64,000 nucleotides of DNA from Hydrogenophilus sp. (GTDB lineage Bacteria > Pseudomonadota > Gammaproteobacteria > Burkholderiales > Thiobacillaceae): positions 290,969 to 354,968 of the forward strand of contig DYFK01000001.1 of the NCBI GenBank assembly GCA_020725265.1, in the 5' to 3' direction. The translations under genes were made by a program, and so were the position numbers. Below the pieces are notes generated by a model. That model was not told where the DNA came from and did not search any database. It saw nothing but the letters and a program-made list of their open reading frames with translations. Below are positions 20,515-63,419 of the stretch, in pieces (position 1 is the first letter of the stretch; each line of letters starts with the position of its first letter).

Positions 20515-21359
20515 GTCTGCGCGTGCAAGGTCTGGGCCACCGTTTCGGCCTCACCGAGGTGCTGTCCGGCATCGACCTCGTCCTGGCGCCGGGAGAGGCG
20601 GTTTCCCTGGTGGGGCCGTCCGGCTGCGGCAAGACCACGCTGCTGCATCTGATCGCCGGTCTGGAGCAGGCCAGCGAAGGCCGTATCGACAACGGCTTCG
20701 GCAATCCGGCCCATGTCTTCCAGCAACCCCGGCTGCTGCCCTGGAAGATCGCGCGCGACAACATCGCGCTGGGCCTGAAGGCGCGAGGCATGGCGCGCGC
20801 CGAACGGGATGCCCGCGCCGATGCCATCGGCCGCCGGCTGGGCCTGAGCCCGGACGATCTGGACAAGTTTCCGCACCAGCTTTCCGGCGGCATGCAGAGC
20901 CGGGTGGCGCTGGCCCGCGCCTTCGTGCTGGAGCCGGACCTGCTGTTGCTGGACGAGCCGTTTTCCGCGCTCGACATCGGCCTGAAGGCCGAGCTGTACG
21001 CGCTGCTGCTGAAGGAATTGGCAGATCGGGGCGCCAGCCTGCTGATGATCACCCACGACCTGATGGAAGCCGTGCGTCTGACCGACCGCATCCTGATGAT
21101 GGCGCCGGAACCGGGCCGCGTCGTCGGCGCGTTCCGGCTCGAACGGCCGCGTAAGCAACGCGACGAGGACTGGATCTACCGCACCACGGCGGCATTCATG
21201 GACGCTCCAGCCGTGCGGCAAGGATTTGGATTACCCCCCTCCCCCGCAAGCGGAGGAAGCGCCGGGGGAGAGGGAAACAGCGTCGTTGAATCCGGCGTCG
21301 AGTCAGTCTCCCGTTGCGGTCCGCTCAAACCGAAGGCCCACGCATGCGGCAAACATTGA
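20511..21359 (+). CDS. NitT/TauT-type ABC transporter ATP-binding protein
   Basis: A 282-residue ABC ATPase. Walker A GPSGCGKTT (residues 35-43), Q-loop VFQQPRLLPW, signature LSGGMQSRVALARA, Walker B LLLLDEPFSALD and the switch His in MITHDLMEAV are intact. SsuB/TauB-type homologues end near residue 240-260. Here residues about 242-282 are a Gly/Ser/Pro tail encoded over a REP-like GC repeat (21236-21274), so the tail is probably a read-through extension of no catalytic value. The start is GTG within the permease stop. The end overlaps the nnrS start region. Confidence 0.9.
   Translation: MSLRVQGLGHRFGLTEVLSGIDLVLAPGEAVSLVGPSGCGKTTLLHLIAGLEQASEGRIDNGFGNPAHVFQQPRLLPWKIARDNIALGLKARGMARAERDARADAIGRRLGLSPDDLDKFPHQLSGGMQSRVALARAFVLEPDLLLLDEPFSALDIGLKAELYALLLKELADRGASLLMITHDLMEAVRLTDRILMMAPEPGRVVGAFRLERPRKQRDEDWIYRTTAAFMDAPAVRQGFGLPPSPASGGSAGGEGNSVVESGVESVSRCGPLKPKAHACGKH
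21236..21274. repeat. REP-like GC inverted repeat inside the end of the ABC ATPase gene
   Basis: CCCCTCCCCCGC (21236-21247) is followed by AAGCGGAGG and by GCCGGGGGAGAGGG. The same left arm occurs at 34944-34955, where it pairs with a perfect right arm. The element reads in frame as the C-terminal PPSPASGGSAGGEG tail of the ATPase. Confidence 0.55.
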
Positions 21360-22585
21360 TCCCTGGTCTGGCCGCCCACCCGCTGTTCCTGTGTGGCTTC
21401 CGCCCGTTTTACTTGGCCACGGCCGGCTATGGCGTGTTTCTGCTGGCGGTCTGGTCGGCGATGCTGTCGGGCGGCTTGCCGATTCCCGAAGTACCCGGCG
21501 GCGCCGTGGTCTGGCATGCCTTCGAGCTGATCCACGGTTTCGCGCTGGCCTCGGTGGCCGGCTTCCTGCTCACCGCCGTGCCGGAATTCACCGGCTGCGC
21601 CATCGTCGACCGGCGCCGGCTGCTCGGGCTGTTCCTGCTCTGGTCGGCCGGGCGCGTGGCCTACTGGTTGGCCGGGGCGATCACGATCTGGCCGGCGGCC
21701 TTGCTCAATCTGGGCTTCCTGGCCTGGCTGGCGGTGATGTTCGCTCCGCCGATCTGGCGCGATCCGGGCCGGCCGCATGTGAGTTTTTTGTACGCGCTCG
21801 CGGCGCTGGCCATCGCCCAGGCCGGCGTATTCCTCGGCGCCGACCCGATGTCCTGGCTGTATGTCGCCACGGGCGTTCTGATGATCCTCATCGTCATCGC
21901 CATGAGCCGGATTTCCATGCGCCTGATCAACGGCATGCTCGACGTGGAAGGCGTGTCCGGCGTCGAATACCTGGCCCGGCCGCCACGCCGCGATCTGGCC
22001 ATGTTCGCCATCGGCCTGTTCACCGCCGTCGAATTCCTGTTGCCCGGCAACGGCGTCAGCGGCTGGCTGGCACTGGCCGCGTCGGCCGCCGTGTTCAACC
22101 TGCTGAACGATTGGCACATCGGCCGCCACCTGTTCAACCGCTGGGTCTTCATGCTCTATCTGGTCTATTGGCTAATGGCCCTGGGCTACGGTTTGATCGG
22201 CGTGGCGATCCTGGGGGATTGGCCGCTGGTCTCGGCGGGGCGGCACCTGCTGCTGGCCGGCGCCATGAGCCTGGCCATTTTCGCGGTGATGGTGGTGGCC
22301 GGCCGCATCCACGCGGGCTACTGGCTGGACAGGCGGCGCTGGCTCCCCGTCGCCGCGACGCTGATCGTGGCGGCGGCGCTGTGCCGCGTGCTGGCCGCCG
22401 TGCCGGTGCTGGCCGAGCGGGCCAATTTCCTGATGGCGCTATCAGCCCTGGCCTGGATGGCGGCGTTCGCGCTGTTCCTGGCGCATTTCTGGCCGGTGCT
22501 GGTCGGCCCACGCCCGGACAACGCCGCCGGCTGCGCCGAACCGGTGCCGCTGGAGGACACGCCGAAGAGCGAATTCGCCTGTTGA
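21344..22585 (+). CDS. nnrS: NnrS family membrane protein
   Basis: A 413-residue polytopic membrane protein with about twelve hydrophobic segments. It carries NnrS landmarks: HPLFLCGFRPFYLATAGYGV at the N-terminus, WHAFELIHGFALASVAGFLLTAVPEFTG, SRISMRLINGM and the C-terminal RPDNAAGCAEP tail. NnrS is a haem- and copper-containing membrane protein induced under NO/denitrifying conditions and thought to lessen nitrosative damage to iron pools. I choose ATG 21344 (RQTLIPGLAAHP); an ATG at 21314 would add ten residues. It is the last gene of the TonB/ABC operon. A diverged, internally deleted relative lies at 30910-31068. Confidence 0.87.
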   Translation: MRQTLIPGLAAHPLFLCGFRPFYLATAGYGVFLLAVWSAMLSGGLPIPEVPGGAVVWHAFELIHGFALASVAGFLLTAVPEFTGCAIVDRRRLLGLFLLWSAGRVAYWLAGAITIWPAALLNLGFLAWLAVMFAPPIWRDPGRPHVSFLYALAALAIAQAGVFLGADPMSWLYVATGVLMILIVIAMSRISMRLINGMLDVEGVSGVEYLARPPRRDLAMFAIGLFTAVEFLLPGNGVSGWLALAASAAVFNLLNDWHIGRHLFNRWVFMLYLVYWLMALGYGLIGVAILGDWPLVSAGRHLLLAGAMSLAIFAVMVVAGRIHAGYWLDRRRWLPVAATLIVAAALCRVLAAVPVLAERANFLMALSALAWMAAFALFLAHFWPVLVGPRPDNAAGCAEPVPLEDTPKSEFAC

Positions 22586-22658
22586 GGCGGGTCGCATCAG
22601 GGGGGTACTCATGGTTTACCGGTGTGTCCCCGGAAGGGATTGGCGACGGGCAGGTGTT

Positions 22659-23846
22659 TCACGATGCGTTGTCGTCAACCAAGCGCGCTGATTTCGGATC
22701 GTATGTCGCATTGGTAATGGAGCCATCCAGAATGCGCCGCACCGCCTCATCGATCACTTGCAGCGGCACCAGAAACCATTCCCTAGGCCGCACCGGATGG
22801 CCGAATCGATCATTGATGGTGAGATCAAGCTGTGCCGGCGCGAAGATGCGATGAAAGAGGTTTTCCAGCTTGGTGCGATCTAGGCCGGCTAATTTGTAGG
22901 TGGCGACGACCTCAACATCCGCCAGCAGATAGGTGGCATCGTGGACGGCATTGGCGATACGGGTTTCGACCTTGCCGCCGGTCACGCCGATCTTGTGGAT
23001 CAGTTCCCGGTGCTCGCTTACAAAGGGGTGCTCCGATCGGCTGCGCAGCACGTATATCGTGCCGCTCTCAATGTCATCCGCTTCCCAGGTTTCGCCAAAT
23101 AGCGGCCCCGCATTGGGATCGGAAATTAAGCGTGCAGCCTCGTCGCGATGCAGCGCGCGCTGCAGGGAGCGCTGCAATACGTTGCTCTCGGTGCCATTGT
23201 CGTAGATGACCCGAAGGCGGCTATCGCGGCGTTCGTATTGCGTGGTGAACGGCTCGCCCGCCTCCGCGATGTAGGCAATCTGGCCACCCACGACAAAGAA
23301 CGTACCCTGCTGGATTTCGTCCATGGTCCGGGTATGGAAGGCGCGTGTCTGGCGCTGTCCGGACTTCAATTCGTTTCTGACTGCCTCGAAGAGCGGCTTG
23401 AACCGCTCGAAGTCCTCGCACGGGGTGCGATTGGCGATTTCCTCGGCCGCGCGCTTCTCGGCGCTGGCGCGAACATGGCGCAATTCCGTGATGTCGGTTG
23501 GACCTGATGCGTCCGCCAATTCGGCCAGCAACTCGTCGTCGTCCAGCGTATACGCCTGCTCCGGCGAGGCGGCTTCAGTCTTGCTCAGCAACCCCTGATG
23601 ATCCAGCGGCATCAGCAGGGTTCGGCATTCCTCCAACAACCGCAGGCGACCCAGGCGCACCGCGTACAGGCGCTCGAAGATATCCCTGTCTTCGCCATGT
23701 CGCGGAACGCGGCCGTGCTGTTCGACAAAGCGCTGTATCTCCTCGAACCCCGCGATGATGCGTTCCTCTTTCGGCGAGCGCCCGCCCTTTTTCTCGGGCT
23801 GAGAGTAGTCGTCCAGCTCGGCGCGCAGTTCGTCCAGATCAGTCAT
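22659..23846 (-). CDS. GIY-YIG (T5orf172/MUG113-type) nuclease, YeeC-like
   Basis: A 395-residue protein. Residues about 262-340 form a T5orf172/MUG113-like GIY-YIG domain: TIYVLRSRSEHP, HKIGVTGGKVETRIANA and KLENLFHRIFAPAQLDL supply the strand pair, catalytic Arg and Glu regions. The N-terminal 240 residues are charged and helical with a DUF-like VVGGQIAYIAEAG segment. I start at ATG 23846, which overlaps the helicase stop by 8 bases; the frame is open further upstream but runs inside the helicase gene. It is the last gene of the four-gene methyltransferase/helicase island and is its likely cutting component (inference from Bacillus subtilis YeeC-type neighbours). Confidence 0.75.
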   Translation of the reverse strand: MTDLDELRAELDDYSQPEKKGGRSPKEERIIAGFEEIQRFVEQHGRVPRHGEDRDIFERLYAVRLGRLRLLEECRTLLMPLDHQGLLSKTEAASPEQAYTLDDDELLAELADASGPTDITELRHVRASAEKRAAEEIANRTPCEDFERFKPLFEAVRNELKSGQRQTRAFHTRTMDEIQQGTFFVVGGQIAYIAEAGEPFTTQYERRDSRLRVIYDNGTESNVLQRSLQRALHRDEAARLISDPNAGPLFGETWEADDIESGTIYVLRSRSEHPFVSEHRELIHKIGVTGGKVETRIANAVHDATYLLADVEVVATYKLAGLDRTKLENLFHRIFAPAQLDLTINDRFGHPVRPREWFLVPLQVIDEAVRRILDGSITNATYDPKSARLVDDNAS

Positions 23847-25884
23847 AGCGTCCCTCGTCCTTGAAGCGGACAAAGGCGGCCGCGCCTTCCGCCAAAAGGC
23901 GTTCATAGGGGTCCGTCGAACCGATTGAAGGCAGGCGTCCGCGCTCCTTCTTGAACTTGACGGCCCGAATCGCGTATTCCCTGGCTTCCTCCAATGACAG
24001 GCTGGTGCGCTTGGCGGCGATGACCGCCGCGACCTGCTTCAGGCTCTCCTCGTTCATCGCGACGGAAAGAATCGCATACGCCTCGCTGAACGGGTTGATG
24101 CGGTCGATCAGGTCGATATCCAGATCGTGGACATTCACGAACTTGCGCACACCCTCGATCAGGGCGGTATTGGGCGCCGGTTCGCTGATTCCCGTCATTT
24201 CGCCAATAGCCACCTGCTTGGCCTGTTGCACCAGGTTCAGAGCGGCGATGGCATGCTGGCGCACGGCCTCCTGATCTTCCTCGTCAAGGTCCGGATACTT
24301 CTCCTTGATGATCTTGCCCAAGCGAACCTGAGTCAGTTCTTCCGGGACCAGTTCCTCGTCGAACAGACCGCGCTCGATGGCGGTCTTGTCCTGAACGAAG
24401 GTGGCGATCACCTCGTTCAGGTCTTCCTGGCAGATGCGCGCCGCTTCCTCGCTCTTCGGCTCGGTCAGCCCCTTGATCTCGATCTGGAACTGGCCGGTGT
24501 CGTGGTTGAAGCCGACATTGCACTGACCCGGCTGATAACCGCCATCGCCATAGTCGAAACCCGGCGTGGCCTCATTGGCCGCCCGCTTGGGCTTGAACTC
24601 GAAACGCGGCGCCAACACCTGCTCCATCAGCAGGCTGGCGGCGATGGCCTTCAATGTGTCGTTGACCGCTTCGGTCACCGCCTGCTCCGAGGCATCGGGC
24701 TCGGCGATCAGGTTGGTGAAACGGGCGTGGGTCTTGCCCGGCGCATCGCGTGTCGCGCGACCGATGATCTGAACGATCTCGGTCAGGCTCGACCGATAAC
24801 CCACCGTCAGCGCGTGTTCGCACCAAATCCAGTCGAAGCCCTCCTTGGCCATGCCCAGAGCGATGATGATGTCGACGTGGTCGCGGTTGTTCTTCCGCGC
24901 CGGGTCTTTCAACGCCATGGATACCCGGTCGCGACGGGCCGGATCGTCGTCGACCAGATCGGCGATGCGCAGCACCTTGTCGGGTGTCTTGACCAACTGG
25001 AAGCCGGTCGCGGCATCGATCCCCTGCCATTCGCCCAGCGCCTCGATGATGTGCTCCACCTCGCGGATCTTGTCTTTCGTGCTCTCCCGAGAATTGACGT
25101 TCGGGATATGTACGATGGTCTTTTCCGCCGGATCGAGCACGTTGAGGATTTCGTCGGCGTAGGCGCCCGAGTAGAAGTAGTAGCCGATGTCGAGCTGTTT
25201 CAGGTGTTCGTAGCCGTTGAGCTGCTCGTAATAGGTGTAGGTGACGGTATCGAACCGCGCTTCGTCCTGGGGCGCCAGCACCGCCACCGCATCGCCCCGG
25301 AAATACGAGCCGGTCATCGCCACGATATGCGCCTTGTCGCGGGCGATGAACTGGCCCAGATGGGCGCCAAGCTTGTTGTCCGGGTTGGCGGAAACGTGAT
25401 GGAACTCGTCGACGGCGATCAGCCGGTTGTCGAACGCCTCGACGCCGAACTTTTCCACGGCGAAGCGGAACGTGGCATGGGTGCAGACCAGCACCTTGTC
25501 GGCACCCGCCAGAAACGCGCCCACCGATACCACCTTGCCGCCATCCTCGCCGGGCGCATTGCACAGATTCCACTTCGGCTCCACGCGCCAATCGGCCCAA
25601 AAGCCGGATTGGGACAGCGGCTCGTCGTTGAAGCTCGCGCCGATGGACTTCTCCGGCACCACGATGATGGCCTGCCTGAGTCCCTGGTTCGCCAGCTTGT
25701 CCAGGGCGATGAACATCAGCGCCCGGCTCTTGCCGGAGGCGGGCGGCGACTTGATCAGTAGATACGGCTCGCCGCGCCGCTCGTAGACACGTTCCTGCAT
25801 GGGGCGCATGCCCAAGGCATTGGCCTGGGTCGAACTGCCGTTGCGGGCGTAAGTCACCGAAACGGAAGGCACGGCTTTAGTCAT
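23839..25884 (-). CDS. DEAD/DEAH-box (DExH) helicase, YeeB-like
   Basis: A 681-residue superfamily 2 helicase. Motif I is PPASGKSRALMF, motif II VDEFHH (DExH class), motif III-like AMTGSYFRGD, and motif VI VQIIGRATRDAPGK. The C-terminal 250 residues are helical without a recognised nuclease. I choose ATG 25884 (MTKAVPSVSV) because GGGAGAGGA precedes it; ATGs at 25905 and upstream starts to 25950 are possible. The next gene overlaps its end. In the island it would translocate on DNA for the GIY-YIG nuclease, as restriction subunits do (inference). Base composition is less GC-rich than in flanking genes. Confidence 0.8.
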   Translation of the reverse strand: MTKAVPSVSVTYARNGSSTQANALGMRPMQERVYERRGEPYLLIKSPPASGKSRALMFIALDKLANQGLRQAIIVVPEKSIGASFNDEPLSQSGFWADWRVEPKWNLCNAPGEDGGKVVSVGAFLAGADKVLVCTHATFRFAVEKFGVEAFDNRLIAVDEFHHVSANPDNKLGAHLGQFIARDKAHIVAMTGSYFRGDAVAVLAPQDEARFDTVTYTYYEQLNGYEHLKQLDIGYYFYSGAYADEILNVLDPAEKTIVHIPNVNSRESTKDKIREVEHIIEALGEWQGIDAATGFQLVKTPDKVLRIADLVDDDPARRDRVSMALKDPARKNNRDHVDIIIALGMAKEGFDWIWCEHALTVGYRSSLTEIVQIIGRATRDAPGKTHARFTNLIAEPDASEQAVTEAVNDTLKAIAASLLMEQVLAPRFEFKPKRAANEATPGFDYGDGGYQPGQCNVGFNHDTGQFQIEIKGLTEPKSEEAARICQEDLNEVIATFVQDKTAIERGLFDEELVPEELTQVRLGKIIKEKYPDLDEEDQEAVRQHAIAALNLVQQAKQVAIGEMTGISEPAPNTALIEGVRKFVNVHDLDIDLIDRINPFSEAYAILSVAMNEESLKQVAAVIAAKRTSLSLEEAREYAIRAVKFKKERGRLPSIGSTDPYERLLAEGAAAFVRFKDEGRYD

Positions 25885-26149
25885 TTCCTCTCCCAAAACA
25901 TCCATTCTGGCGACGGGGCATCCCAGCCAACCGGAGAAATCAAAACCCAATCAAGAAATTTGGCACGCCAAAATCAGCGTAACCCATTGTTACTTAATGA
26001 CGAGCACTTGGCCGACTGGCTGTTTGGACAGGCGGCAACCAAAACCCGATCAAAACTTCTGTACATCCGATTTCATCCGTTTCCCACGCGTCACGCCTGG
26101 GTCATCCACCCATAACCACCCATAACCACCCATAACCACCCATAACCAT
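25885..26149. other. Non-coding gap inside the island, ending in a 10-bp tandem repeat
   Basis: 265 bases between the Schlafen-type gene and the helicase gene, markedly more AT-rich than the window average. No gene is seen. Positions 26111-26149 are a tandem array of the unit CATAACCACC (three exact copies plus one ending in ATT), just past the Schlafen stop codon. The gap could carry a second promoter for the helicase/nuclease pair, but I could not identify one. Confidence 0.6.
26111..26149. repeat. 10-bp tandem repeat, four copies
   Basis: The unit CATAACCACC begins at 26111, 26121 and 26131, with a fourth, slightly altered copy at 26141. The array abuts the end of the Schlafen-type gene. 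It is too short and has no spacers, so it is not a CRISPR. Slippage at this site could vary its length between strains. Confidence 0.85.
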
Positions 26150-27832
26150 TCAAGGTTCATTGAGCGTGTAAAAGGCACCACGCAATGTCCCATGCTGAAC
26201 CAGCTTGCCTTCCTCCTTGAGGCGCTTGAGCAACCACTTCGCCTGATCCACATTTAGATGGCACAGGTCCATGACCTCCCGGCGCTGAATCCGGCCGTGA
26301 TGCCGCACATGCCCCAGCACCATCTGTTCATGCTGCAAACGGCTGAACCCTGCCTGTCGCGTGTATTCCACCTGGCCGCCCTTGGCCCGGTACAACTCCG
26401 CCGACAAGGTATAGCTGCGGTTGCGCGTGTTGCCATGGGGTTGCACCAGTCCGGCCTCCACCAGCCGCTCCAGTGTGCGCTTCGCTTGGGCCGCGTCCCG
26501 ATGGATATGGCGGGCCAATTCTTCGGCATTCAGCCGCTTTTGCTCACGCAGGGCCGCCAGCACAATCAGGCTGTCGATTGGCAGCATGACGCCGTCCTGA
26601 AGGCTTTCCTGCTCAACCACGAGTTTCAGGAACACCTCATCGGCGTCCACCGTGGCCAGCTGCAAGACCACGTTGTTGCCATCGGTACGGCTGTAATCCG
26701 GTTCGGGGCGACCGAAACGAAGCATGCCTCGATAAATCTTGTCCACGCCGCGTCCCGACCGCTCGACGATGCCGATGCGCTTCATCGCATCGGCCAGGGC
26801 CGGGTTGCGCGGTCGCGGCTCGGTAGTCAACAGGTTATCCAGCGTCACGCCTTCCACCAGCCCGCCAGGATTGCTGACGGTCAAGCCGTGGTCATCCAGC
26901 CGCACATGCACCGCACCCAGCCGGTAGTAATCGCGATGCACCAGGGCATTGGCCACTGCCTCGCGGAATGCCCCCATGTCGACTTTGGGAACCGGCACCC
27001 GGAACAACCCGATCTGCACTTCCTTCTCCGGGTTGTTGGGGCGGAAATTGGTTTCCAGCCAGTCCAGTGCCTTCAACAGGGGAAATCGGCGGAACTCGTT
27101 GAACGATACCGTTTCCCGTGCCAACACCTGAAATGCCAGTTCATGCGTTGGCACCAACTCCCGCAACGCGGTTTCACGGCCGATCACCAGCAGGCCGGTC
27201 AGGGTGGGCGCCCGCTCACCTCCTTGCGTGCGGGTGGTGAAACCCAGCGCACCATCCAGCGCCTCGTCGTCCAGTTCCAGCAAGACGCGGTCGCCGCCGT
27301 ACTGACGGACGGACTGGCGCAGACGCTCCCGTTCAAGCGGGTCGAAATCCGCCAGCGTCGCCCCGGCCACCGCCTGGGCGGAAGCATCCGCCAAACCGAA
27401 GCGGCCGGCGCGGCTGTCGCGGTCATGCGGCAACATGGGTACGCACTCGGGCAGCCCGTCATGCTTGAGGCGACGGCGCAGATACACGCCCGCCGTGGTC
27501 GCCACCTCGGATGCGCACCGGGGGACCGCAATGCGCGCCACGCGGATGCCCGCCATGTCGAACGCCTCAACCGTCACCGCCAGGGAAGGTGAGGTTCTGG
27601 CCGCCACCAAGCCCGGCAGACCGGCCAGGTTCAGGTGCGCCTCATGCAAACCCGTGGGGGTGCCATCATCCTCAACGCCCAGCCAGAGTTCACCGCCCTC
27701 GCTGTTGGCCAGACAGGCCAGGGCTTCCACCAGTTCATCGTCGGGCAGACGCTTGCGGTCGCTCTTGAATTCGACGGTCAAGGTTTCCGACGGCGGCAGG
27801 ATGGATGAAGGGCGGCGCGACCTCGTGCTCAT
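26150..27832 (-). CDS. Schlafen-type AlbA_2 / RecG-like ATP-binding domain protein
   Basis: A 560-residue protein. Residues about 18-130 are an AlbA_2 (Schlafen-like) domain: LTVEFKSDRKRLPDDELVEALACLANSEGGELWLGV. Residues about 295-400 match the ATP-binding region of RecG-like transcriptional regulators: FREAVANALVHRDYYR, LTVSNPGGLVEGVT and GIVERSGRGVDKI. The last ~150 residues look like two winged-helix modules (AEELARHIHRDAAQAKRTLERL; VMDLCHLNVDQAKWLLKRLKEEG). Such proteins are regulators or, when Schlafen-like, nucleic-acid-acting defence proteins. It overlaps the methyltransferase stop by four bases, so the two are co-translated; a regulatory role for the island is plausible but unproven. 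Confidence 0.78.
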   Translation of the reverse strand: MSTRSRRPSSILPPSETLTVEFKSDRKRLPDDELVEALACLANSEGGELWLGVEDDGTPTGLHEAHLNLAGLPGLVAARTSPSLAVTVEAFDMAGIRVARIAVPRCASEVATTAGVYLRRRLKHDGLPECVPMLPHDRDSRAGRFGLADASAQAVAGATLADFDPLERERLRQSVRQYGGDRVLLELDDEALDGALGFTTRTQGGERAPTLTGLLVIGRETALRELVPTHELAFQVLARETVSFNEFRRFPLLKALDWLETNFRPNNPEKEVQIGLFRVPVPKVDMGAFREAVANALVHRDYYRLGAVHVRLDDHGLTVSNPGGLVEGVTLDNLLTTEPRPRNPALADAMKRIGIVERSGRGVDKIYRGMLRFGRPEPDYSRTDGNNVVLQLATVDADEVFLKLVVEQESLQDGVMLPIDSLIVLAALREQKRLNAEELARHIHRDAAQAKRTLERLVEAGLVQPHGNTRNRSYTLSAELYRAKGGQVEYTRQAGFSRLQHEQMVLGHVRHHGRIQRREVMDLCHLNVDQAKWLLKRLKEEGKLVQHGTLRGAFYTLNEP

Positions 27833-30615
27833 TGGATGGCCTTCCCTCGCTTGGGTTTGGTGGCGGCCTTGGGCTGCTCGGCCGTCATCTTGGTATACAG
27901 CTCAAACAGCTTTTCCAGCCGCTCGGTGTCGTTGCGGAAGCGGCGGCCGATGTAGATGCGCTCCAGAACCTCGTCGTTGCGCTCATGGGCCGCGCGCAGG
28001 TCGGCGGGCATGGCCTCGGGGTCGTACAGGTCGGCGATGGTGGCCGGAAAATGCGCCTCGCGGGCGAGCAGGATGTCGGAGGCCGTGCGGGTGAGGTCGG
28101 CTTTGTTCTTGTCGGTGAGGGTGGGAACGGGGAAGGTGTTCCAGCCGAGGGTGTTGGAGTAGGAAAAATCAGTTCTCATCCGAACGCAGACTGTGCCAAT
28201 CCAGACCCAATGCAGACGCGAGGCGATCAGCGCCATGTTCCAGAGGGGGGCGTCGTAGAGGGCAAAGTTTCGGTCGCCGATGATGGTTCCTTGCGACAGC
28301 AGTGCGACAGGCAAGTAAGGCCGGTTTTCGGAAGAAACACGAGGAACGACCATCAGCCGCTCATTGCCTCTCTGCCTGATTTGCTGAAAAGCATGTGGCG
28401 TGGTCGCCCCCCTTCGAGTCAATTCTTTGGTGCTTGCTTGGCGCATTGCGCGAACTTCGGCCAGGCGGGTCGCGACGCTGGGGATTGAATTGGCGAGATC
28501 AATGCTTTCGTCGTCAATCCAGAGACAGAGTCGCTGCTTTCCATTGATGGCTTCATCCGAACCAACAAAGGGGCGAATAAACTTTTCAGTACGGGAATCA
28601 GACAAGCGAAGCGCTTCCGCCTCGCTCAAATCCAGAATCAGGTGCCCGCCGTCAGCCGGCTTATTGCCGTTGGTCATCGGCGAGACAGAACCCAATGGGT
28701 TGGTTTCTGCCTCAACCACGACATTTACGCCAGCGACCAAATACGCATTGATGTAATCAGCCTCGCGCAACACCGTTTGCTTGTCGCCGCCTTCCCCATA
28801 TAAGCGGCGTGGCTGTCCAGCATTTCGCGCAATACCAACGATAGCTACCGTTACTCCCGCATTGTGACTGGCAAGATTCGCCCATTTGAAACTGGTATGA
28901 GCGAAGGCGATTTCGTGTCCAGTGTTGAAAATCAGCGGCCATAGATACGCGACTTGTTGCCCCTGACAAATGCTGTTGGTACTCACAAACGCAGCTACCG
29001 AGTTGGTGTGTGTGCCGTAATCGGCAGCCTTCATGAACCAGCCCGCTACATAGTCCAGTGTTTTCCAGGTCTTCGTGCGCCTGCTGAAGATGGCTTCCAA
29101 GTCGGCTTTTTGCGTGGCGGTTTGCCATGTCGAGCCAAGATAGGGTGGATTCCCGCAGATATACGTCTCCCCACCCTCATTCTCGAAATCAATCTGCGCC
29201 TGATCCAGCGGCGTCCCAAACAAATCTTCCGCCAGCAATTTCACCCCCGTGCCAGTCGGCGGGCAGATGCTCAACCAGTCCAGCCGCAGAGCATTGCCGC
29301 AGGTGATCCAGTTCTGCGACTCCAGCGGCAGAAATTCGGCCAGCGCCTCTTTCTGGCCGCGATACATCACGTCGCACTGGTACTCGGCGATGATGAGGGC
29401 AAGGCGGGCAATCTCGGCCGGGAAGTCGCGCAGCTCGATGCCGCGGAAGTTGGTCAGCGGGATGTCGCTCTTGCGCCCCGGCTCGCCGCGCCGCTCGTTG
29501 ATGGCGTTCTCGATCTCGCGCATCTGCTTGTAAGCAATGACCAGGAAGTTGCCCGAGCCGCAGGCCGGGTCGAACACCCGGATACGGGCCATGCGTTTCT
29601 TCAGGTTGAGCAGCTTGAGCTTGTTGTCGCCGGCCTCCGCCAGCTTGGCGCGCAGATCGTCCAGGAACAGCGGGTTGAGCACTTTCAGGATGTTGGGCAC
29701 GCTGGTGTAGTGCATGCCCAGGGCGCCGCGCTCCTCGTCGTCGGCCACGGCCTGGATCATCGAACCGAAGATGTCGGGGTTGATCCGGGTCCACTCCAGA
29801 TTGCCGACGTGCAGCAGGTAGGAACGGGCGATCTTGCTGAAGCGGGGCACGTCCAGGTTGCCGGAGAACAGGCCGCCGTTGACGTAGGGGAAGGTGTCGG
29901 CCCAGCGCGGCAGGTTGGCGGCGGCGCGGTCTTCGATCCTGACGTTCATGGCGCGGAAGATTTCGCCGATCACCGCGTGGGTGTTGGACGAATCCCGCGC
30001 GCTCATCTGGTCGATGGTGGCGGTGAACAGGCCGGAGCCATGGAAGATGTCGGTGTCTTCGGCGAAGAAGCAGAAGATCAGGCGGGCCATGAAGTGGTTC
30101 ATGTCCGGGCGGCGGTCGGCCGCGCCCCAGTCCGGGTTGTCCTTCAGCAGTTCGATATACAGCCGGTTCAGGCGGCCGGTGGCCTTGATGTCGAAGGCGC
30201 TTTCGCGGATTTGCTTGACGGTGGTGATGCCGGCCAGGGGCAGGAAGAAGCCGAAGTGGTCGGGGAAGTTTGGGTAGGCACAGGCGACCGTCTCACCAGT
30301 GGCGAGGTCTTCCGCCTCGAAGTCCGCGCCGTCGGTGGCGAGGATGAAGCGGGCCTTGGCCTTCGCGGTCGCCGGGCTGGCCTTCAGCTCGGCCAGGGTC
30401 TGGGTAACCCGGCCCGTGTCGGCGACGGCGATGTGGATGTTGTTGGTTTGCAGCACGCCGCCCAGGTCGGATTTGTTCGACGCCCCCGCGCGCAGGCGCT
30501 TGAGGGTCGTTTCCTTGTTGCCGAAGGCCATGAGAAAGGCAAATGGAAACGCCGCGCGGTCGAACGGCTGGAGCGCCAGGCTTGATATGGCTTCTTCAAT
30601 TTCTACGGCATTCAT
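27829..30615 (-). CDS. MmeI/YeeA (DnmA)-like adenine-specific DNA methyltransferase
   Basis: A 928-residue class I SAM-dependent DNA methyltransferase. Motif I is FDPACGSGNFLV (residues about 348-359) and the catalytic motif IV is GNPPYLGS (488-495), the N6-adenine type. The N-terminal region (FPFAFLMAFGNKETTLKRL, FPDHFGFFLPLAGIT) and the C-terminal target-recognition region resemble MmeI-family enzymes. I see no clear PD-(D/E)xK motif at the N-terminus, so it is probably a methyltransferase without its own nuclease. Order with helicase and GIY-YIG genes recalls B. subtilis yeeA(dnmA)-yeeB-yeeC. A -10-like GATAAT lies on its strand about 40 bases upstream (30654-30659). Segments of the C-terminal half (about 28150-29050) are AT-richer, a sign of transfer. 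Confidence 0.85.
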   Translation of the reverse strand: MNAVEIEEAISSLALQPFDRAAFPFAFLMAFGNKETTLKRLRAGASNKSDLGGVLQTNNIHIAVADTGRVTQTLAELKASPATAKAKARFILATDGADFEAEDLATGETVACAYPNFPDHFGFFLPLAGITTVKQIRESAFDIKATGRLNRLYIELLKDNPDWGAADRRPDMNHFMARLIFCFFAEDTDIFHGSGLFTATIDQMSARDSSNTHAVIGEIFRAMNVRIEDRAAANLPRWADTFPYVNGGLFSGNLDVPRFSKIARSYLLHVGNLEWTRINPDIFGSMIQAVADDEERGALGMHYTSVPNILKVLNPLFLDDLRAKLAEAGDNKLKLLNLKKRMARIRVFDPACGSGNFLVIAYKQMREIENAINERRGEPGRKSDIPLTNFRGIELRDFPAEIARLALIIAEYQCDVMYRGQKEALAEFLPLESQNWITCGNALRLDWLSICPPTGTGVKLLAEDLFGTPLDQAQIDFENEGGETYICGNPPYLGSTWQTATQKADLEAIFSRRTKTWKTLDYVAGWFMKAADYGTHTNSVAAFVSTNSICQGQQVAYLWPLIFNTGHEIAFAHTSFKWANLASHNAGVTVAIVGIARNAGQPRRLYGEGGDKQTVLREADYINAYLVAGVNVVVEAETNPLGSVSPMTNGNKPADGGHLILDLSEAEALRLSDSRTEKFIRPFVGSDEAINGKQRLCLWIDDESIDLANSIPSVATRLAEVRAMRQASTKELTRRGATTPHAFQQIRQRGNERLMVVPRVSSENRPYLPVALLSQGTIIGDRNFALYDAPLWNMALIASRLHWVWIGTVCVRMRTDFSYSNTLGWNTFPVPTLTDKNKADLTRTASDILLAREAHFPATIADLYDPEAMPADLRAAHERNDEVLERIYIGRRFRNDTERLEKLFELYTKMTAEQPKAATKPKRGKAIQ

Positions 30616-30909
30616 GGTTCGAGCATAACGGAGGCACGGGTTCTGGCGCGGCCATTATCTGGTTGTTCTCGCATGATCGACACGCAAAGGCCACAAGCGA
30701 TTTCCATCCAGCCACCATGAACCCCAAGGCCTGTCGGATTGGCTTCGACATTCGGCGGCAGGCCGTCGACGCGCCCTTCCCGCAAACGATCGCCACCCGC
30801 GCGCAAAGCCCGGCGCCGGGGCGCTGTCGCATACTTGCGGGCCATGTCCGTTCCCGTCGCCGGCCGCGCGCGCTTTCGCAGAATGAGTTGATCGCGCTGC
30901 TCGCGCTGA
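30616..30909. other. Island promoter region and unexplained spacer
   Basis: About 290 bases upstream of the methyltransferase gene. On the minus strand GATAAT (30654-30659) could be a -10 element, though its -35 is weak. The remainder has no gene I can support; short open frames on both strands lack ribosome-binding sites and homology. The segment leads directly into the nnrS remnant and is probably debris from the event that placed the island here. Confidence 0.45.
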
Positions 30910-31068
30910 TTGGCGCGGCCGCCGCGCCGCGATCTGGCCATGTTCGCCTTCGGTCTCTTCCTGTGGCGCTTCTGGCAACCGCTGACCCGGTCCCAGCCGG
31001 ACAACGCCGCCGGCTGCGCGGAGCCGGTGGCGACGGAGGCAGCGGCGACACGGGAATTCGCCTGCTGA
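30910..31068 (+). pseudogene. Internally deleted nnrS remnant (about 52 codons)
   Basis: In one frame ending at TGA 31066 the sequence reads LARPPRRDLAMFAFGLF, then FWQPLTRSQPDNAAGCAEP and a REFAC end. The first part equals an internal piece of the intact NnrS (around residue 210); the second equals its extreme C-terminus. About 150 codons in between are gone and there is an in-frame stop just before the homology begins (30907). A 33-base stretch at 30914-30946 differs from the intact gene by a single base, while the C-terminal part is more diverged. It is therefore a scar of a second nnrS copy or a recombinant, on the far side of the defence island. Confidence 0.8.
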
Positions 31069-31091
31069 AAGCGCGTCAGGCCAACGGTCCG

Positions 31092-31862
31092 CTAGGGGGT
31101 AACCAGTCCCATCCGTACCGCCACCGCCACCGCGTGCACCTTGCTGTGCACGCCGAGCTTCCTCATGGCATTGCCGAGGTGATGGATCACTGTCCGCTCA
31201 CTGATGTTGAGGATGTCGGCGGTTTCACCATTGGTCTTGCCCCGGCAGGCCCAGACCAGGCACTCCCGTTCGCGGTCGGTGAGCAGGCCGATGGCCGCTG
31301 GCGGGGCATCGACCTGGCCACGCAGGGCCAGCACCCGTTCGTGGTAGAGCAATGCCGCGAGCCGGAACCATGACGGCGGCTGGCCGTGCCGTTCCAGTTC
31401 CGCTGGGTCGCCGGGCCAGAACAGACTGATGATCGCCGAACGCGGCTGGCCAAACGGGTCGCGGGCATGGCAGGGCAGCACGTAGCCGTCGCGATAACCA
31501 TGGTCGCTGGCCAGTTCCACCAGCAGGCGCACCCGCCCCTTCACGCCCGGGCGCGGCTTGAGGTGGCGCCGGTAGTCCGGGCAATCGCTCCACAGGAACG
31601 GCGCGTTGCTGCTCGCCGCCCGCCGAACGGTGGGATCGAAGGCCGGCAGGTCGTGTTCCAGGTAGGTGGCGAGGAAGCCCCGGTCGAGGGAGGTCACGAA
31701 GTAGGGGGTCGGCTCGCGCGGCAGCGGCACCCGGCTGCAATCGGCATAGGTGCTGGCGGTGAAGCCGTATTCGGCCGCCATCCGGTCAAGCACGGGTTCC
31801 AGCGTGGCCAGATCGCGGCTGTCCATGACCCGGTTGAGCATGTCGTCCAGGATCAGGCTCAC
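31092..31862 (-). CDS. LuxR-family regulator with autoinducer-binding domain
   Basis: A 256-residue regulator. I set the start at GTG 31862 because GGGAGGGG lies just upstream; the open frame extends further (to 32009) without family similarity. Residues about 20-165 match the autoinducer-binding domain: the aromatic Tyr, an Asp-Pro pair (FDPTVRRA) and a Trp (PFLWSD) correspond to ligand-pocket residues of TraR/LuxR, followed by a GYRDGYVLPC segment. The C-terminal ~65 residues are the GerE-type helix-turn-helix (LTDRERECLVWACRGKTN, SERTVIHHLGNAMRKLGV). No luxI is in the window, so it may be a solo receptor. It is divergent from the beta-helix gene, and a lux-box-like dyad lies between them. 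Confidence 0.88.
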   Translation of the reverse strand: MSLILDDMLNRVMDSRDLATLEPVLDRMAAEYGFTASTYADCSRVPLPREPTPYFVTSLDRGFLATYLEHDLPAFDPTVRRAASSNAPFLWSDCPDYRRHLKPRPGVKGRVRLLVELASDHGYRDGYVLPCHARDPFGQPRSAIISLFWPGDPAELERHGQPPSWFRLAALLYHERVLALRGQVDAPPAAIGLLTDRERECLVWACRGKTNGETADILNISERTVIHHLGNAMRKLGVHSKVHAVAVAVRMGLVTP

Positions 31863-61863: not shown

Positions 61864-61911
61864 CAACCAACTGTTTCAACCGTGCTTTTTTAAACCGTAA
61901 GGAGAACTGAA

Positions 61912-62205
61912 ATGGCTGCTGTGACCGGAATTGCTCTTGGAATGATCGAAACCCGCGGTCTGGTGCCCGCGATTGAAGCCGCGGATGCCATGACCAAGGC
62001 GGCTGAAGTCCGCCTGGTGGGCCGTGAATTTGTTGGTGGCGGCTACGTCACCGTCATGGTGCGCGGCGAGACCGGTGCCGTGAACGCGGCGGTGCGCGCT
62101 GGCGCGGACGCCTGCGAGCGGGTCGGCGACGGCCTGGTCGCCGCCCACATCATCGCCCGCGTGCATTCGGAAGTGGAAGGCGTGCTGCCCCAAGCCGCCG
62201 CCTGA
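61912..62205 (+). CDS. csoS1: Carboxysome shell hexamer protein CsoS1 (copy 1)
   Basis: A 97-residue BMC-domain shell protein: [28 protein letters not shown], the [21 protein letters not shown] pore region, [16 protein letters not shown]. Hexamers tile the shell facets and pass bicarbonate and RuBP. AAGGAG precedes the ATG. It shares a ~60-base identical start with copy 3, including the leader. Confidence 0.95.
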   Translation: MAAVTGIALGMIETRGLVPAIEAADAMTKAAEVRLVGREFVGGGYVTVMVRGETGAVNAAVRAGADACERVGDGLVAAHIIARVHSEVEGVLPQAAA

Positions 62206-62241
62206 GCTGGATCTGACCTGATCGACTGAAGGAGAAATGAA

Positions 62242-62538
62242 ATGGCTGAAGTGACTGGAATTGCCCTGGGCATGATCGAAACCCGTGGCCTGGTGCCCGC
62301 CATCGAGGCGGCCGACGCCATGACCAAGGCCGCCGAGGTGCGCCTGATCGGCCGCCAGTTCGTCGGCGGCGGCTACGTCACCGTGCTGGTGCGCGGCGAG
62401 ACCGGCGCGGTCAACGCCGCCGTCCGCGCCGGCGCGGACGCCTGCGAGCGGGTCGGCGACGGACTGGTGGCCGCCCACATCATCGCCCGTGTCCACTCCG
62501 AGGTGGAAGGCATCCTGCCCAAGGCGCCGAGCGCATGA
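62242..62538 (+). CDS. csoS1: Carboxysome shell hexamer protein CsoS1 (copy 2)
   Basis: A 98-residue BMC-domain paralogue. It differs from copy 1 at a few places (MAEVTG start, LIGRQFVGGG, TVLVRGE, GILPKAPSA end) but keeps the pore and edge motifs. The leader (GAAGGAGAAATGAA) is like those of the other two. It is the most divergent of the three at DNA level. Confidence 0.95.
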   Translation: MAEVTGIALGMIETRGLVPAIEAADAMTKAAEVRLIGRQFVGGGYVTVLVRGETGAVNAAVRAGADACERVGDGLVAAHIIARVHSEVEGILPKAPSA

Positions 62539-62599
62539 GGCAGAAGGCGCGGGATGGGCGCGTCCCACCCGCGCGTACCCGATTTGAAGGAGAACTGAA

Positions 62600-62932
62600 A
62601 TGGCTGCTGTGACCGGAATTGCTCTTGGAATGATCGAAACCCGTGGCCTGGTGCCCGCCATCGAGGCGGCCGACGCCATGACCAAGGCGGCGGAAGTGCG
62701 CCTGGTGGGGCGCGAATTCGTCGGTGGCGGTTACGTCACCGTCATGGTGCGCGGCGAGACCGGCGCCGTGAACGCGGCGGTGCGCGCCGGCGCGGACGCC
62801 TGCGAGCGGGTCGGCGACGGCCTGGTCGCCGCTCACATCATCGCCCGCGTGCATTCGGAAGTCGAAGGCGTGCTGCCCGGCTCGCCCAACGCCGGCGGCG
62901 GCGGGCGGGATGGCGAGGTCGCGCGGAGCTGA
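62600..62932 (+). CDS. csoS1: Carboxysome shell hexamer protein CsoS1 (copy 3, C-terminally extended, CsoS1B-like)
   Basis: A 110-residue BMC-domain protein with a Gly/Arg-rich C-terminal extension ([17 protein letters not shown]), like the CsoS1B form of Halothiobacillus, which is also about 110 residues. At DNA level it is a mosaic: bases 1-44 equal copy 1, about 45-90 equal copy 2, and the rest is copy-1-like. This indicates gene conversion within the tandem array. Confidence 0.93.
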
Positions 62933-62942
62933 GGGCCGGATC

Positions 62943-63419
62943 ATGTGGGCGAATCCTCGTCTCGCGGGCTACCTGACCCAGGCGCTGGACCATGAATTTT
63001 CCGTGGTGCAGCAATACCTGACCCAGGCCTGCCTGTGCGAACTCTGGGGCGAAGCGGGCCTGGCGGCCTACTTCCGCAAGGAGGCCAACGAGGAACAGGG
63101 CCACGCCGCCCGGCTCATCGGCCACCTGCTCAGCCTGGGTCTGGCCCCCAACGGCACCCGCTTGAAGCCGGTGCGCCCGGGCCGGGACCTGCGCGAGATG
63201 CTGCTGCTGGACCGGGGCCTGGAACTGGACGCGGTGCGGCTCTACCAGGATGCCCTGCATTACGCCCGGCGCTGCCGGGACGAAGTGGCGGCGACCCTGT
63301 TCGCCGAGCTGCTGGCGGATGAGCAAGGCCACTTGGCGGAGCTGGACCGCATGTTGTCGGAACTGGATGAGAAGGGTTGCGACCCGGTGCGTTTTCTAGA
63401 GGAGATATGCCATGTCTGA
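62943..63419 (+). CDS. Ferritin-like (bacterioferritin-like) diiron protein of the carboxysome operon
   Basis: A 158-residue four-helix ferritin-like protein. Metal ligands are visible as Glu18, Glu51-x2-His54 (EQGH), Glu94 and Glu127-x2-His130 (DEQGH), the bacterioferritin diiron set. Such a gene follows csoS1 in many cso operons; its role there is unknown, possibly iron or redox handling. I choose ATG 62943 (MWANPRL). The end overlaps the acRAF start by 8 bases. Confidence 0.88.
   Translation: MWANPRLAGYLTQALDHEFSVVQQYLTQACLCELWGEAGLAAYFRKEANEEQGHAARLIGHLLSLGLAPNGTRLKPVRPGRDLREMLLLDRGLELDAVRLYQDALHYARRCRDEVAATLFAELLADEQGHLAELDRMLSELDEKGCDPVRFLEEICHV

What the first reader, a model, noticed from the sequence alone, without database searches (positions are those of the whole stretch)
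22659..30615. Four-gene YeeABC-like island with an inserted Schlafen-type gene
Seen: an MmeI/YeeA-like adenine methyltransferase without a visible nuclease motif, a Schlafen (AlbA_2)/RecG-like protein, a DExH helicase and a GIY-YIG nuclease, all on the minus strand. The gene pairs at each end overlap by 4-8 bases. Known: methyltransferase-helicase-T5orf172 nuclease trios such as B. subtilis yeeA(dnmA)-yeeB-yeeC. Inference: an anti-phage restriction-like system in which the methyltransferase marks self, the helicase and GIY-YIG protein cut non-self DNA, and the Schlafen-type protein regulates or adds RNA/DNA damage. The inserted Schlafen gene makes it a distinct composition worth describing. 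AT-richer stretches and the nnrS scar suggest transfer.
Basis: partly seen in the sequence, partly recalled or inferred. Interest (0 to 1): 0.72.

Follow-up and report, generated by a model that had tools for sequence, protein, structure and literature searches.

The report
Swappable Schlafen cassette in restriction system
A known but little-studied bacterial restriction-like gene trio carries, at one exact slot, an exchangeable gene for a predicted RNA-cutting Schlafen protein, and a good part of the bacterial Schlafen genes examined are followed by an apparently undescribed pair of evenly phased DNA repeats.

Summary
The four genes are real and intact. Methyltransferase, helicase and GIY-YIG protein form a DnmA(YeeA)-YeeB-YeeC trio, described before. 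The Schlafen-type gene (AlbA_2, GHKL ATPase, winged helix) occupies a variable slot: of 80 related loci, 71 show the methyltransferase; 36 of these scored as cargo-free (2 unreliably), 35 carry cargo of about ten recognised families or without any hit. In 31 of 36 cargo-free loci the helicase start overlaps the methyltransferase stop by 4 bases; in 23 of 35 the cargo uses that junction. Cargo needs at least 32 changes on the nuclease tree; apparent fossils of replaced Schlafens remain, one in the window.

The Schlafen triad (E16, E21, D55) aligns with E205/E210/D248 of rat SLFN13, so I read it as a backup RNase plugged into a Type I-like restriction system.

Unexpected: such Schlafen genes are often followed by 10-11-bp-period repeats, in one group two boxes (TTGATCGGGTTTTGAT) 87-110 bp apart in helical steps: 12 of 55 discovery genes and 5 of 13 further genes, against 0 of 78 nuclease 3' flanks and 1 of 30 other cargos (an apparent fossil). 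The motif also occurs elsewhere. Function unknown; I infer an operator-like DNA site. Nothing was bench-tested.

The parts
27829..30615 (-). MmeI-family (DnmA/YeeA-like) adenine methyltransferase, 928 aa; DPACGSGNF and NPPY kept, variable target-recognition region
   Evidence: Pfam MmeI domains; PDB 5hr4 MmeI E 3.5e-140; conservation over 61 rows
27829..27832 (-). docking junction ATGA: methyltransferase stop and cargo start share 4 bp
   Evidence: same overlap in 31 of 36 cargo-free (helicase) and 23 of 35 cargo-bearing loci (cargo)
26150..27832 (-). Schlafen-A cargo, 560 aa: AlbA_2 (E16, E21, K23, D55), GHKL-type HATPase_c_4, C-terminal winged helices
26106..26148 (-). 10-bp tandem array (TTATGGGTGG x4.3) just behind the Schlafen stop; the doubled 20-mer occurs nowhere else in the genome as held
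26037..26053 (-). box 1 of the two-box element, TTGATCGGGTTTTGGTT
25938..25954 (-). box 2 of the two-box element, TTGATTGGGTTTTGATT, 99 bp downstream of box 1
23839..25884 (-). YeeB-like SF2 helicase (longest ORF from 25950; probable start 25884); ASGKS, DEFHH, QIIGRATR conserved
22659..23846 (-). YeeC-like GIY-YIG (T5orf172/MUG113) protein (longest ORF from 23906; probable start 23846)
30911..31068 (+). decayed 3' remnant of a second nnrS copy at the right edge of the island

Best explanation
A Type I-like restriction-modification trio with a plug-in accessory effector. The MmeI-type protein methylates an asymmetric site and gives specificity; the SF2 helicase and GIY-YIG protein form the restriction arm. 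At the methyltransferase-helicase junction sits an exchangeable cargo, here a Schlafen cassette: a gene for an AlbA_2 RNase with a GHKL ATPase and winged helices, plus its own 3' repeat element. Most likely the Schlafen is held inactive until restriction is blocked or overrun, then cuts tRNA or other RNA and stops growth, as PrrC does beside a Type I system. Shown here by sequence: gene content, exact junction, cargo turnover, conserved triad, 3' element. Inferred: methylation and restriction activity, RNase activity, trigger, and the operator-like role of the repeats.
For: Trio conserved as a unit: helicase end and nuclease start within 150 bp in 79 of 80 loci; all three proteins matched in 21 of 21 further loci; catalytic motifs near invariant. 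Cargo: 35 of 71 loci; of the representatives scanned, YhcG/DUF1016, RhuM, PIN, ParE, RHH, BrnT, DUF559, an AAA/OLD-like ATPase, PDC-S67, and in the even sample PDDEXK_4 and YafQ. Cargo needs at least 32 changes on the GIY tree of 72 rows (maximum 36; shuffled mean 35.25). Schlafen-A proteins of three distant trios form one clade (96/97) beside a Type I-linked pair (87/88). E16, E21, K23 invariant and D55 at least 90% in 23 proteins, aligned with SLFN13 entry 5yd0 (profile E 2.1e-5), where E205, E210 and D248 matter for tRNA cleavage (PMC5862951, passages). Fold: 3lmm E 3.5e-31, SLFN13 N-domain 8.1e-5.
Against: No activity was measured. In B. subtilis single deletions of the trio did not change infection by three phages, and dnmA did not affect plasmid transformation (PMC9973331, PMC7261158, passages). 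The Schlafen also occurs without a visible system (L103, L105 and several plasmids), so it need not depend on the trio. Vertebrate Schlafens clamp RNA with two lobes; one AlbA_2 per chain would have to dimerise. None of the 21 even-sample trio loci, 9 with a gap of 250 bp or more, holds a Schlafen: it is a minority cargo.
Confidence: 0.5

Rival explanations
1. The Schlafen protein is mainly a controller of the restriction arm, like C proteins of Type II systems: it binds the repeats behind its own gene through its winged helices and sets when the helicase and nuclease are expressed.
For: In the eight trio loci with a Schlafen the next restriction gene starts 73 bp or more behind it (my reading), while 22 of 30 other-cargo loci offer a helicase start within 60 bp of the last cargo stop (6 do not, three of these with Schlafen-type repeats; 2 unreadable). 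Two boxes also lie between the HsdS-position gene and HsdR in Type I locus L266, and a single repeat between methyltransferase and helicase-type gene in L274. Box spacing follows the helix, and the inter-box DNA is A+T-richer than the gene in 11 of 13.
Against: The element also follows Schlafen genes whose next gene points the other way (L271, annotated; L178 and L265, by ORF calling). The triad is kept, which a pure regulator would not need. A simple consensus scan found no sigma-70-like promoter in 22400-31200.
Confidence: 0.25
2. The Schlafen cassette is an independent mobile defence gene (or hitchhiker) that merely profits from the operon; it does not work with the trio.
For: Cargo is exchanged often; Schlafens occur alone, on viral contigs, in a phage and on plasmids; apparent fossils show replacement.
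Against: Insertion at one exact 4-bp junction in 23 of 35 loci and a trio-specific Schlafen-A clade of three suggest that the position matters; coupled translation alone could explain the position.
Confidence: 0.2
3. The trio is a relic and only the methyltransferase still works, as proposed for B. subtilis.
For: Negative phage and plasmid tests in B. subtilis (PMC9973331, PMC7261158, passages).
Against: Motifs of helicase and nuclease are intact and near invariant, and the target-recognition region is the variable part; PMC9973331 (passage) reports higher phage sensitivity after deletion of homologues in Vibrio crassostreae.
Confidence: 0.05

Closest known systems
DnmA-YeeB-YeeC of Bacillus subtilis and its Vibrio crassostreae homologue
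   Same: same three families, order and direction
   Different: a variable cargo slot between methyltransferase and helicase, here a Schlafen gene; the passages of PMC9973331 that I read place the helicase and nuclease directly 1st and 2nd downstream and do not describe such a slot
PrrC/RloC and other HEPN toxins embedded in R-M operons
   Same: predicted RNA-cutting accessory gene inside a restriction operon (PMC3710099, passages)
   Different: Schlafen AlbA_2 instead of HEPN; host system is YeeABC
Schlafen-HATPase-wHTH backup effectors of BREX and BR systems
   Same: same domain order, reported from at least 1017 taxa in PMC12839542 (passages)
   Different: found here in YeeABC loci; the 3' repeat element is not mentioned in the passages that I read
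Guilt-by-embedding candidates (PADLOC PDC and HEC families; Payne et al. preprint, seen only as cited in PMC12988326 and PMC12255303)
   Same: same principle; two of ten cargo proteins scanned hit PDC single-gene models (L004 PDC-S02, L026 PDC-S67)
   Different: YeeABC is not named as a host system in the passages read; the preprint itself was not available
RptR-DarTG2-Type I island of E. coli
   Same: accessory module inside R-M with repeat operator sites (PMC12255303, passages)
   Different: there the repeats lie in the island promoter, here behind the cargo gene

Membership tests
DnmA-YeeB-YeeC trio | MmeI-type methyltransferase, SF2 helicase, T5orf172/GIY-YIG protein in this order and direction | tested here: met
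   relatives
DnmA-YeeB-YeeC trio | methyltransferase lacks the N-terminal nuclease motif of MmeI | tested here: inconclusive
   no conserved acid or lysine in residues 60-68 of 61 rows, but MmeI residues 1-107 were not aligned directly
DnmA-YeeB-YeeC trio | m6A at a non-palindromic site | not testable with these tools
   needs methylome data
Schlafen RNases | AlbA_2 core with the E-x4-E and D of the SLFN13 active site | tested here: met
Schlafen RNases | fold like the Schlafen N-domain | tested here: inconclusive
   model pLDDT 86.1; Foldseek finds SLFN13 5yd0 at E 8.1e-5, probability 1.00, but rmsd 10.6 and TM 0.16/0.26 over 142 columns
Schlafen RNases | two-lobed clamp in one chain | tested here: not met
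   one AlbA_2 domain found by Pfam
Schlafen RNases | RNA cleavage | not testable with these tools
   bench assay needed
Type I restriction-modification | separate HsdM, HsdS and HsdR | tested here: not met
   one MmeI-type protein holds methyltransferase and target recognition; helicase and nuclease are separate
PrrC-like guard | accessory RNase inside an R-M operon, released when restriction is inhibited | tested here: inconclusive
   position and triad fit; release not testable here
C-protein controller | small HTH regulator binding repeats before the restriction gene | tested here: inconclusive
   winged helices and repeats before the helicase present, but a large multi-domain protein, and the element also occurs without a co-directional gene behind it

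The most novel reading that the evidence does not exclude
Bacterial Schlafen genes form a two-part cassette: the protein and a 3' DNA element of 10-11-bp-period repeats, in one large group two boxes set about 8 to 10 helical turns apart around an A+T-rich core. The protein, through its winged helices, bridges the boxes into a loop; this DNA complex is the silencing or sensing device that keeps the RNase off, and its disturbance (phage DNA degradation, blocked restriction) releases it. The cassette is moved as a unit into R-M, BREX, YeeABC, plasmid and phage loci.
Probability: 0.25. Interest if true: 0.8.

Novelty: new variant of a known kind. Interest (0 to 1): 0.58.

Why it matters
It turns an orphan trio, judged defunct in its model host, into a chassis with one exact docking point for defence cargo, and so gives a source of candidate effectors (several cargos scanned match no Pfam family). 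The 3' element gives a first concrete handle on how bacterial Schlafens may be kept silent: bind, mutate or delete the boxes and watch toxicity.

Tried and rejected
Structure prediction with 7 sequences failed (pLDDT 51.8); with 23 it worked. No Rfam family reached its threshold in the window and no tRNA was found. No solved relative of helicase or nuclease by sequence. I considered that the boxes are exclusive to Schlafens and rejected it: of 50 pattern places examined 10 lie behind a Schlafen ORF, and among the viral-contig stretches only L234 does. I considered an RNA element: the folds of 13 stretches look unlike each other by eye, and helical spacing speaks for DNA; not excluded. I considered a promoter for the next gene as the general purpose and rejected it because copies without a co-directional next gene exist. 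The coarse periodicity scans were weak: 40-base windows beat all shuffles in 7 of 28 (6 Schlafen-A, 1 Schlafen-B), 24-base windows in 2 of 28, one of them a run of N. The 9-mer test gave 6/12, 8/16 and 7/28 (shuffled means 0.3, 0.5, 0.5), but its controls were not clean: 6/79 behind the nuclease (shuffled 1.4) and 2/30 behind other cargos (shuffled 0.7); in the further 13 genes 6 of 13 behind and 2 of 13 in front. The two-box test is the specific one.
Full report
What is there. PADLOC files the methyltransferase under REase_MTase_IIG (E 1.2e-285), gives the helicase only a weak PbeA hit (5.3e-4) and the nuclease none. The helicase probably starts at ATG 25884, so the Schlafen-helicase spacer is about 265 bp.

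The trio. It is known: B. subtilis dnmA-yeeB-yeeC (PMC7261158 and PMC9973331, passages; the first cites Morgan et al. 2009 for the grouping). In my data it is a tight unit. Of 80 loci fetched by the nuclease (the best 80 of 353, so biased to close relatives), helicase end and nuclease start lie within 150 bp in 79, the exception being L033 with 171 bp. In an even sample of 398 genomes of the phylum, 22 had the helicase at E 1e-100 or better, own genome included; in the other 21, methyltransferase and nuclease were matched in 21 of 21. Walker A, DEFHH and GRATR of the helicase, the GIY-YIG residues of the nuclease, and DPACGSGNF and NPPY of the methyltransferase are near invariant, while the target-recognition region varies (81, 72 and 61 rows with the window; 0, 9 and 20 loci left out as too short or absent).

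The slot. In the 80 loci, 9 contigs lack the methyltransferase; of the other 71, 36 scored as having no insert (two of these, L017 and L076, on an unreliable gap) and 35 hold one or more ORFs between methyltransferase and helicase. In the even sample 9 of 21 have a gap of 250 bp or more, one of them (L134) with only an 83-residue ORF. I scanned representatives, not every cargo: YhcG/DUF1016, RhuM, Schlafen (two subfamilies), an AAA/OLD-like ATPase with PIN, PIN, ParE with RHH, BrnT, DUF559, PDC-S67, PDDEXK_4, YafQ, an HTH/M78 protein, a reverse transcriptase, and several without a hit. The labels PLD-like and HEPN-like used on the tree are my reading of the sequence, not a call.

The junction. 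In 31 of 36 cargo-free loci the helicase start and the methyltransferase stop overlap by 4 bases (RTGA); two more overlap by one base and three could not be read. In 23 of 35 cargo loci the first cargo ORF uses exactly this overlap, and so does the window. Cargo thus takes the place of the helicase in translational coupling.

Turnover. On a tree of 72 nuclease proteins (9 loci without methyltransferase left out) the cargo label needs at least 32 changes; the most possible is 36, and 200 label shuffles gave 33-36, mean 35.25: some inheritance, mostly exchange. For insert against no insert the count is 21, shuffled mean 24.2, 28 of 200 shuffles as low. The nearest relatives of the window's nuclease are L002 (DUF1016), L003 (Schlafen-B) and L004 (DUF1016). 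Apparent fossils agree: L002 keeps a Schlafen-A tail behind its DUF1016 gene (88% identical to L013 over 34 residues); L004 keeps a two-box element behind DUF1016; the window carries the two-box element, typical of Schlafen-B, behind its Schlafen-A gene (19-bp exact match to L003, E 5.6e-7). So the window probably once held a Schlafen-B.

The Schlafen protein. Schlafen-A relatives are rare: 3 of 369 genomes of the class at E 1e-40 and 7 of 398 of the phylum at 1e-60, own genome included in both. Contexts: YeeABC (window, L013, L028), Type I R-M (L084, L085) and BREX (L102, L104) by PADLOC models of the neighbours, an HKD/Snf2-type helicase with a Type IIG-like methyltransferase (L086), and no visible system (L103, L105); L091 and L092 are partial and were not placed. 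The three YeeABC copies form one clade (96/97); L013 and L028 belong to different phyla (13 rows). Across 23 proteins E16, E21 and K23 are invariant and D55 is at least 90% conserved. A profile of these finds SLFN14 (9.8e-7) and the SLFN13 N-domain entry 5yd0 (2.1e-5); counting along that alignment the three residues fall on the positions that, by their spacing, are E205, E210 and D248. In PMC5862951 (passages) mutating any of the three lowers tRNA cleavage and E205A and E210A are inactive. The model (pLDDT 86.1) matches 3lmm over its length and Schlafen N-domains locally and loosely. Schlafen-B shares the triad. It also occurs on plasmids between an MmeI-type methyltransferase and the helicase and nuclease (L267, and near-identical L279, with a 294-residue unknown gene and a small ORF in between), in Type I loci (L266, L275, L276), in a DUF1156/DUF3780 locus that I read as BR-like (L274), in a phage and a satellite phage, on viral contigs and without visible partners.

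The 3' element. While reading the spacer I saw a 10-bp array (TTATGGGTGG, 26106-26148), unique in the genome as held, and then that L013 and L028 have different 10-bp arrays at the same place. A 9-mer direct repeat at 9-12 bp within 70 nt after the stop occurs in 6 of 12 Schlafen-A, 8 of 16 Schlafen-B-type and 7 of 28 sampled HATPase_c_4 genes, against 6 of 79 behind the nuclease and 2 of 30 behind other cargos (one of these L004); shuffled means are 0.3-1.4, and the nuclease control too exceeds its own. A stricter form, two boxes of the type TTGA-N7-TTGA 85-120 bp apart, occurs in 1 of 12, 6 of 16 and 5 of 27, against 0 of 78 and 1 of 30 (L004), shuffled means 0.03 or less; no pair was found in front of 28 of these genes nor on the other strand. 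I wrote the rule on these loci, so I tested it on 13 further genes, chosen for diversity from the hits listed: 5 of 13 have two boxes (4 of 12 without the near-duplicate), 0 of 13 in front, shuffled mean 0.01; spacings 98, 99, 99, 100 and 110. So most Schlafen genes examined, 8 of 13 there, lack the two boxes; three of those eight (L270, L274, L275) show a single 11-bp repeat of another sequence. L007 (RhuM) seems to hold a degenerate pair, seen by eye only.

Spacing. One distance per gene (14, L004 included; two genes also offer another pair): 87, 87, 88, 97, 98, 98, 99, 99, 99, 100, 106, 109, 110, 110. They cluster in steps of about one helical turn (R 0.79 at 10.5 bp; 0 of 20,000 uniform draws as high). 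Related loci are not independent, so the number overstates the case; the further genes agree. The inter-box DNA is A+T-richer than the gene in 11 of 13 and than the DNA behind it in 11 of 13.

Specificity. In 398 genomes the exact pattern TTGATYNGGTTTTGATY has 17 matches in 14 genomes, its reversed control none in the rows shown; 8 of the 17, at 5 loci, lie within 251 nt behind a Schlafen ORF. The other 9, and all but L234 of the viral stretches (30 stretches), do not. The motif is enriched behind Schlafens, not private to them. The 20-mer TTATGGGTCG doubled hits one viral contig, the known L084.

Mechanism. Established here by sequence: gene content, slot, exact junction, exchange, conserved triad, 3' element. 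Taken from papers: trio homologues in V. crassostreae affect phage sensitivity (PMC9973331, passage); Schlafen-HATPase-wHTH proteins are seen as backup RNases beside BREX (PMC12839542, passages); accessory toxins beside R-M form a layered defence (PMC3710099, passages). Inferred: that the trio restricts, that the Schlafen cuts RNA when restriction fails, and that the repeats are a DNA site bound by the protein. The controller reading remains a serious rival, because in trio loci the element separates modification from restriction genes.

Island. G+C is somewhat lower inside. Homology to a congener (L108) runs to 22588, just past the nnrS stop; the right side holds a decayed nnrS 3' end (30911-31068), closer to the nnrS of that congener (78.6% over 84 bp) than to the window's own copy (72% over 123 bp). 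None of the seven flanking genes scanned is an integrase; the rest of the window was not scanned.

Literature limits. In the listings and passages that I read no paper describes the slot or the element: (the letters themselves: 0 papers). The library lacks most preprints and subscription papers; two key preprints (embedded defences; bacterial Schlafens) were seen only as citations.

Noticed in passing
30911-31068: Decayed 3' end of a second nnrS copy, in direct orientation to the intact nnrS (21314-22585), bounding the island; its sequence is nearer to the nnrS of a congener (L108).
   Followed up: partly
L137, L138: Very long cargo stretches (gaps of about 4 and 7 kb) in the same slot, with an HTH/M78 protein (L137) and a reverse transcriptase (L138).
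   Followed up: partly
L011, L015, L040, L042, L044, L007: Cargo proteins in the slot with no Pfam hit and no or only marginal PADLOC hits (of L007 the first of two cargo genes): candidate new effectors.
   Followed up: partly
L028:2282-2654: Besides the 10-bp array, two palindrome-like stretches (one TTAACATGA...TCATGTTAA) in the Schlafen-helicase spacer, seen by eye.
   Followed up: no
61876-62944: A 330-bp tandem duplication (84% alike) that reads like two adjacent microcompartment-shell-type genes; the name is recalled, no family search was run.
   Followed up: no
genome sample: Some genomes of the phylum hold several HATPase_c_4 genes: 7 in G455, 6 each in G385, G388 and G426.
   Followed up: no
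L267 and L279: The trio with Schlafen-B sits on a conjugative and a mobilizable plasmid of Roseobacteraceae; tblastn lists 40 plasmid records with this Schlafen at 60-80% identity, of which four were looked at: two have the trio, two (L268, L269) show none.
   Followed up: partly
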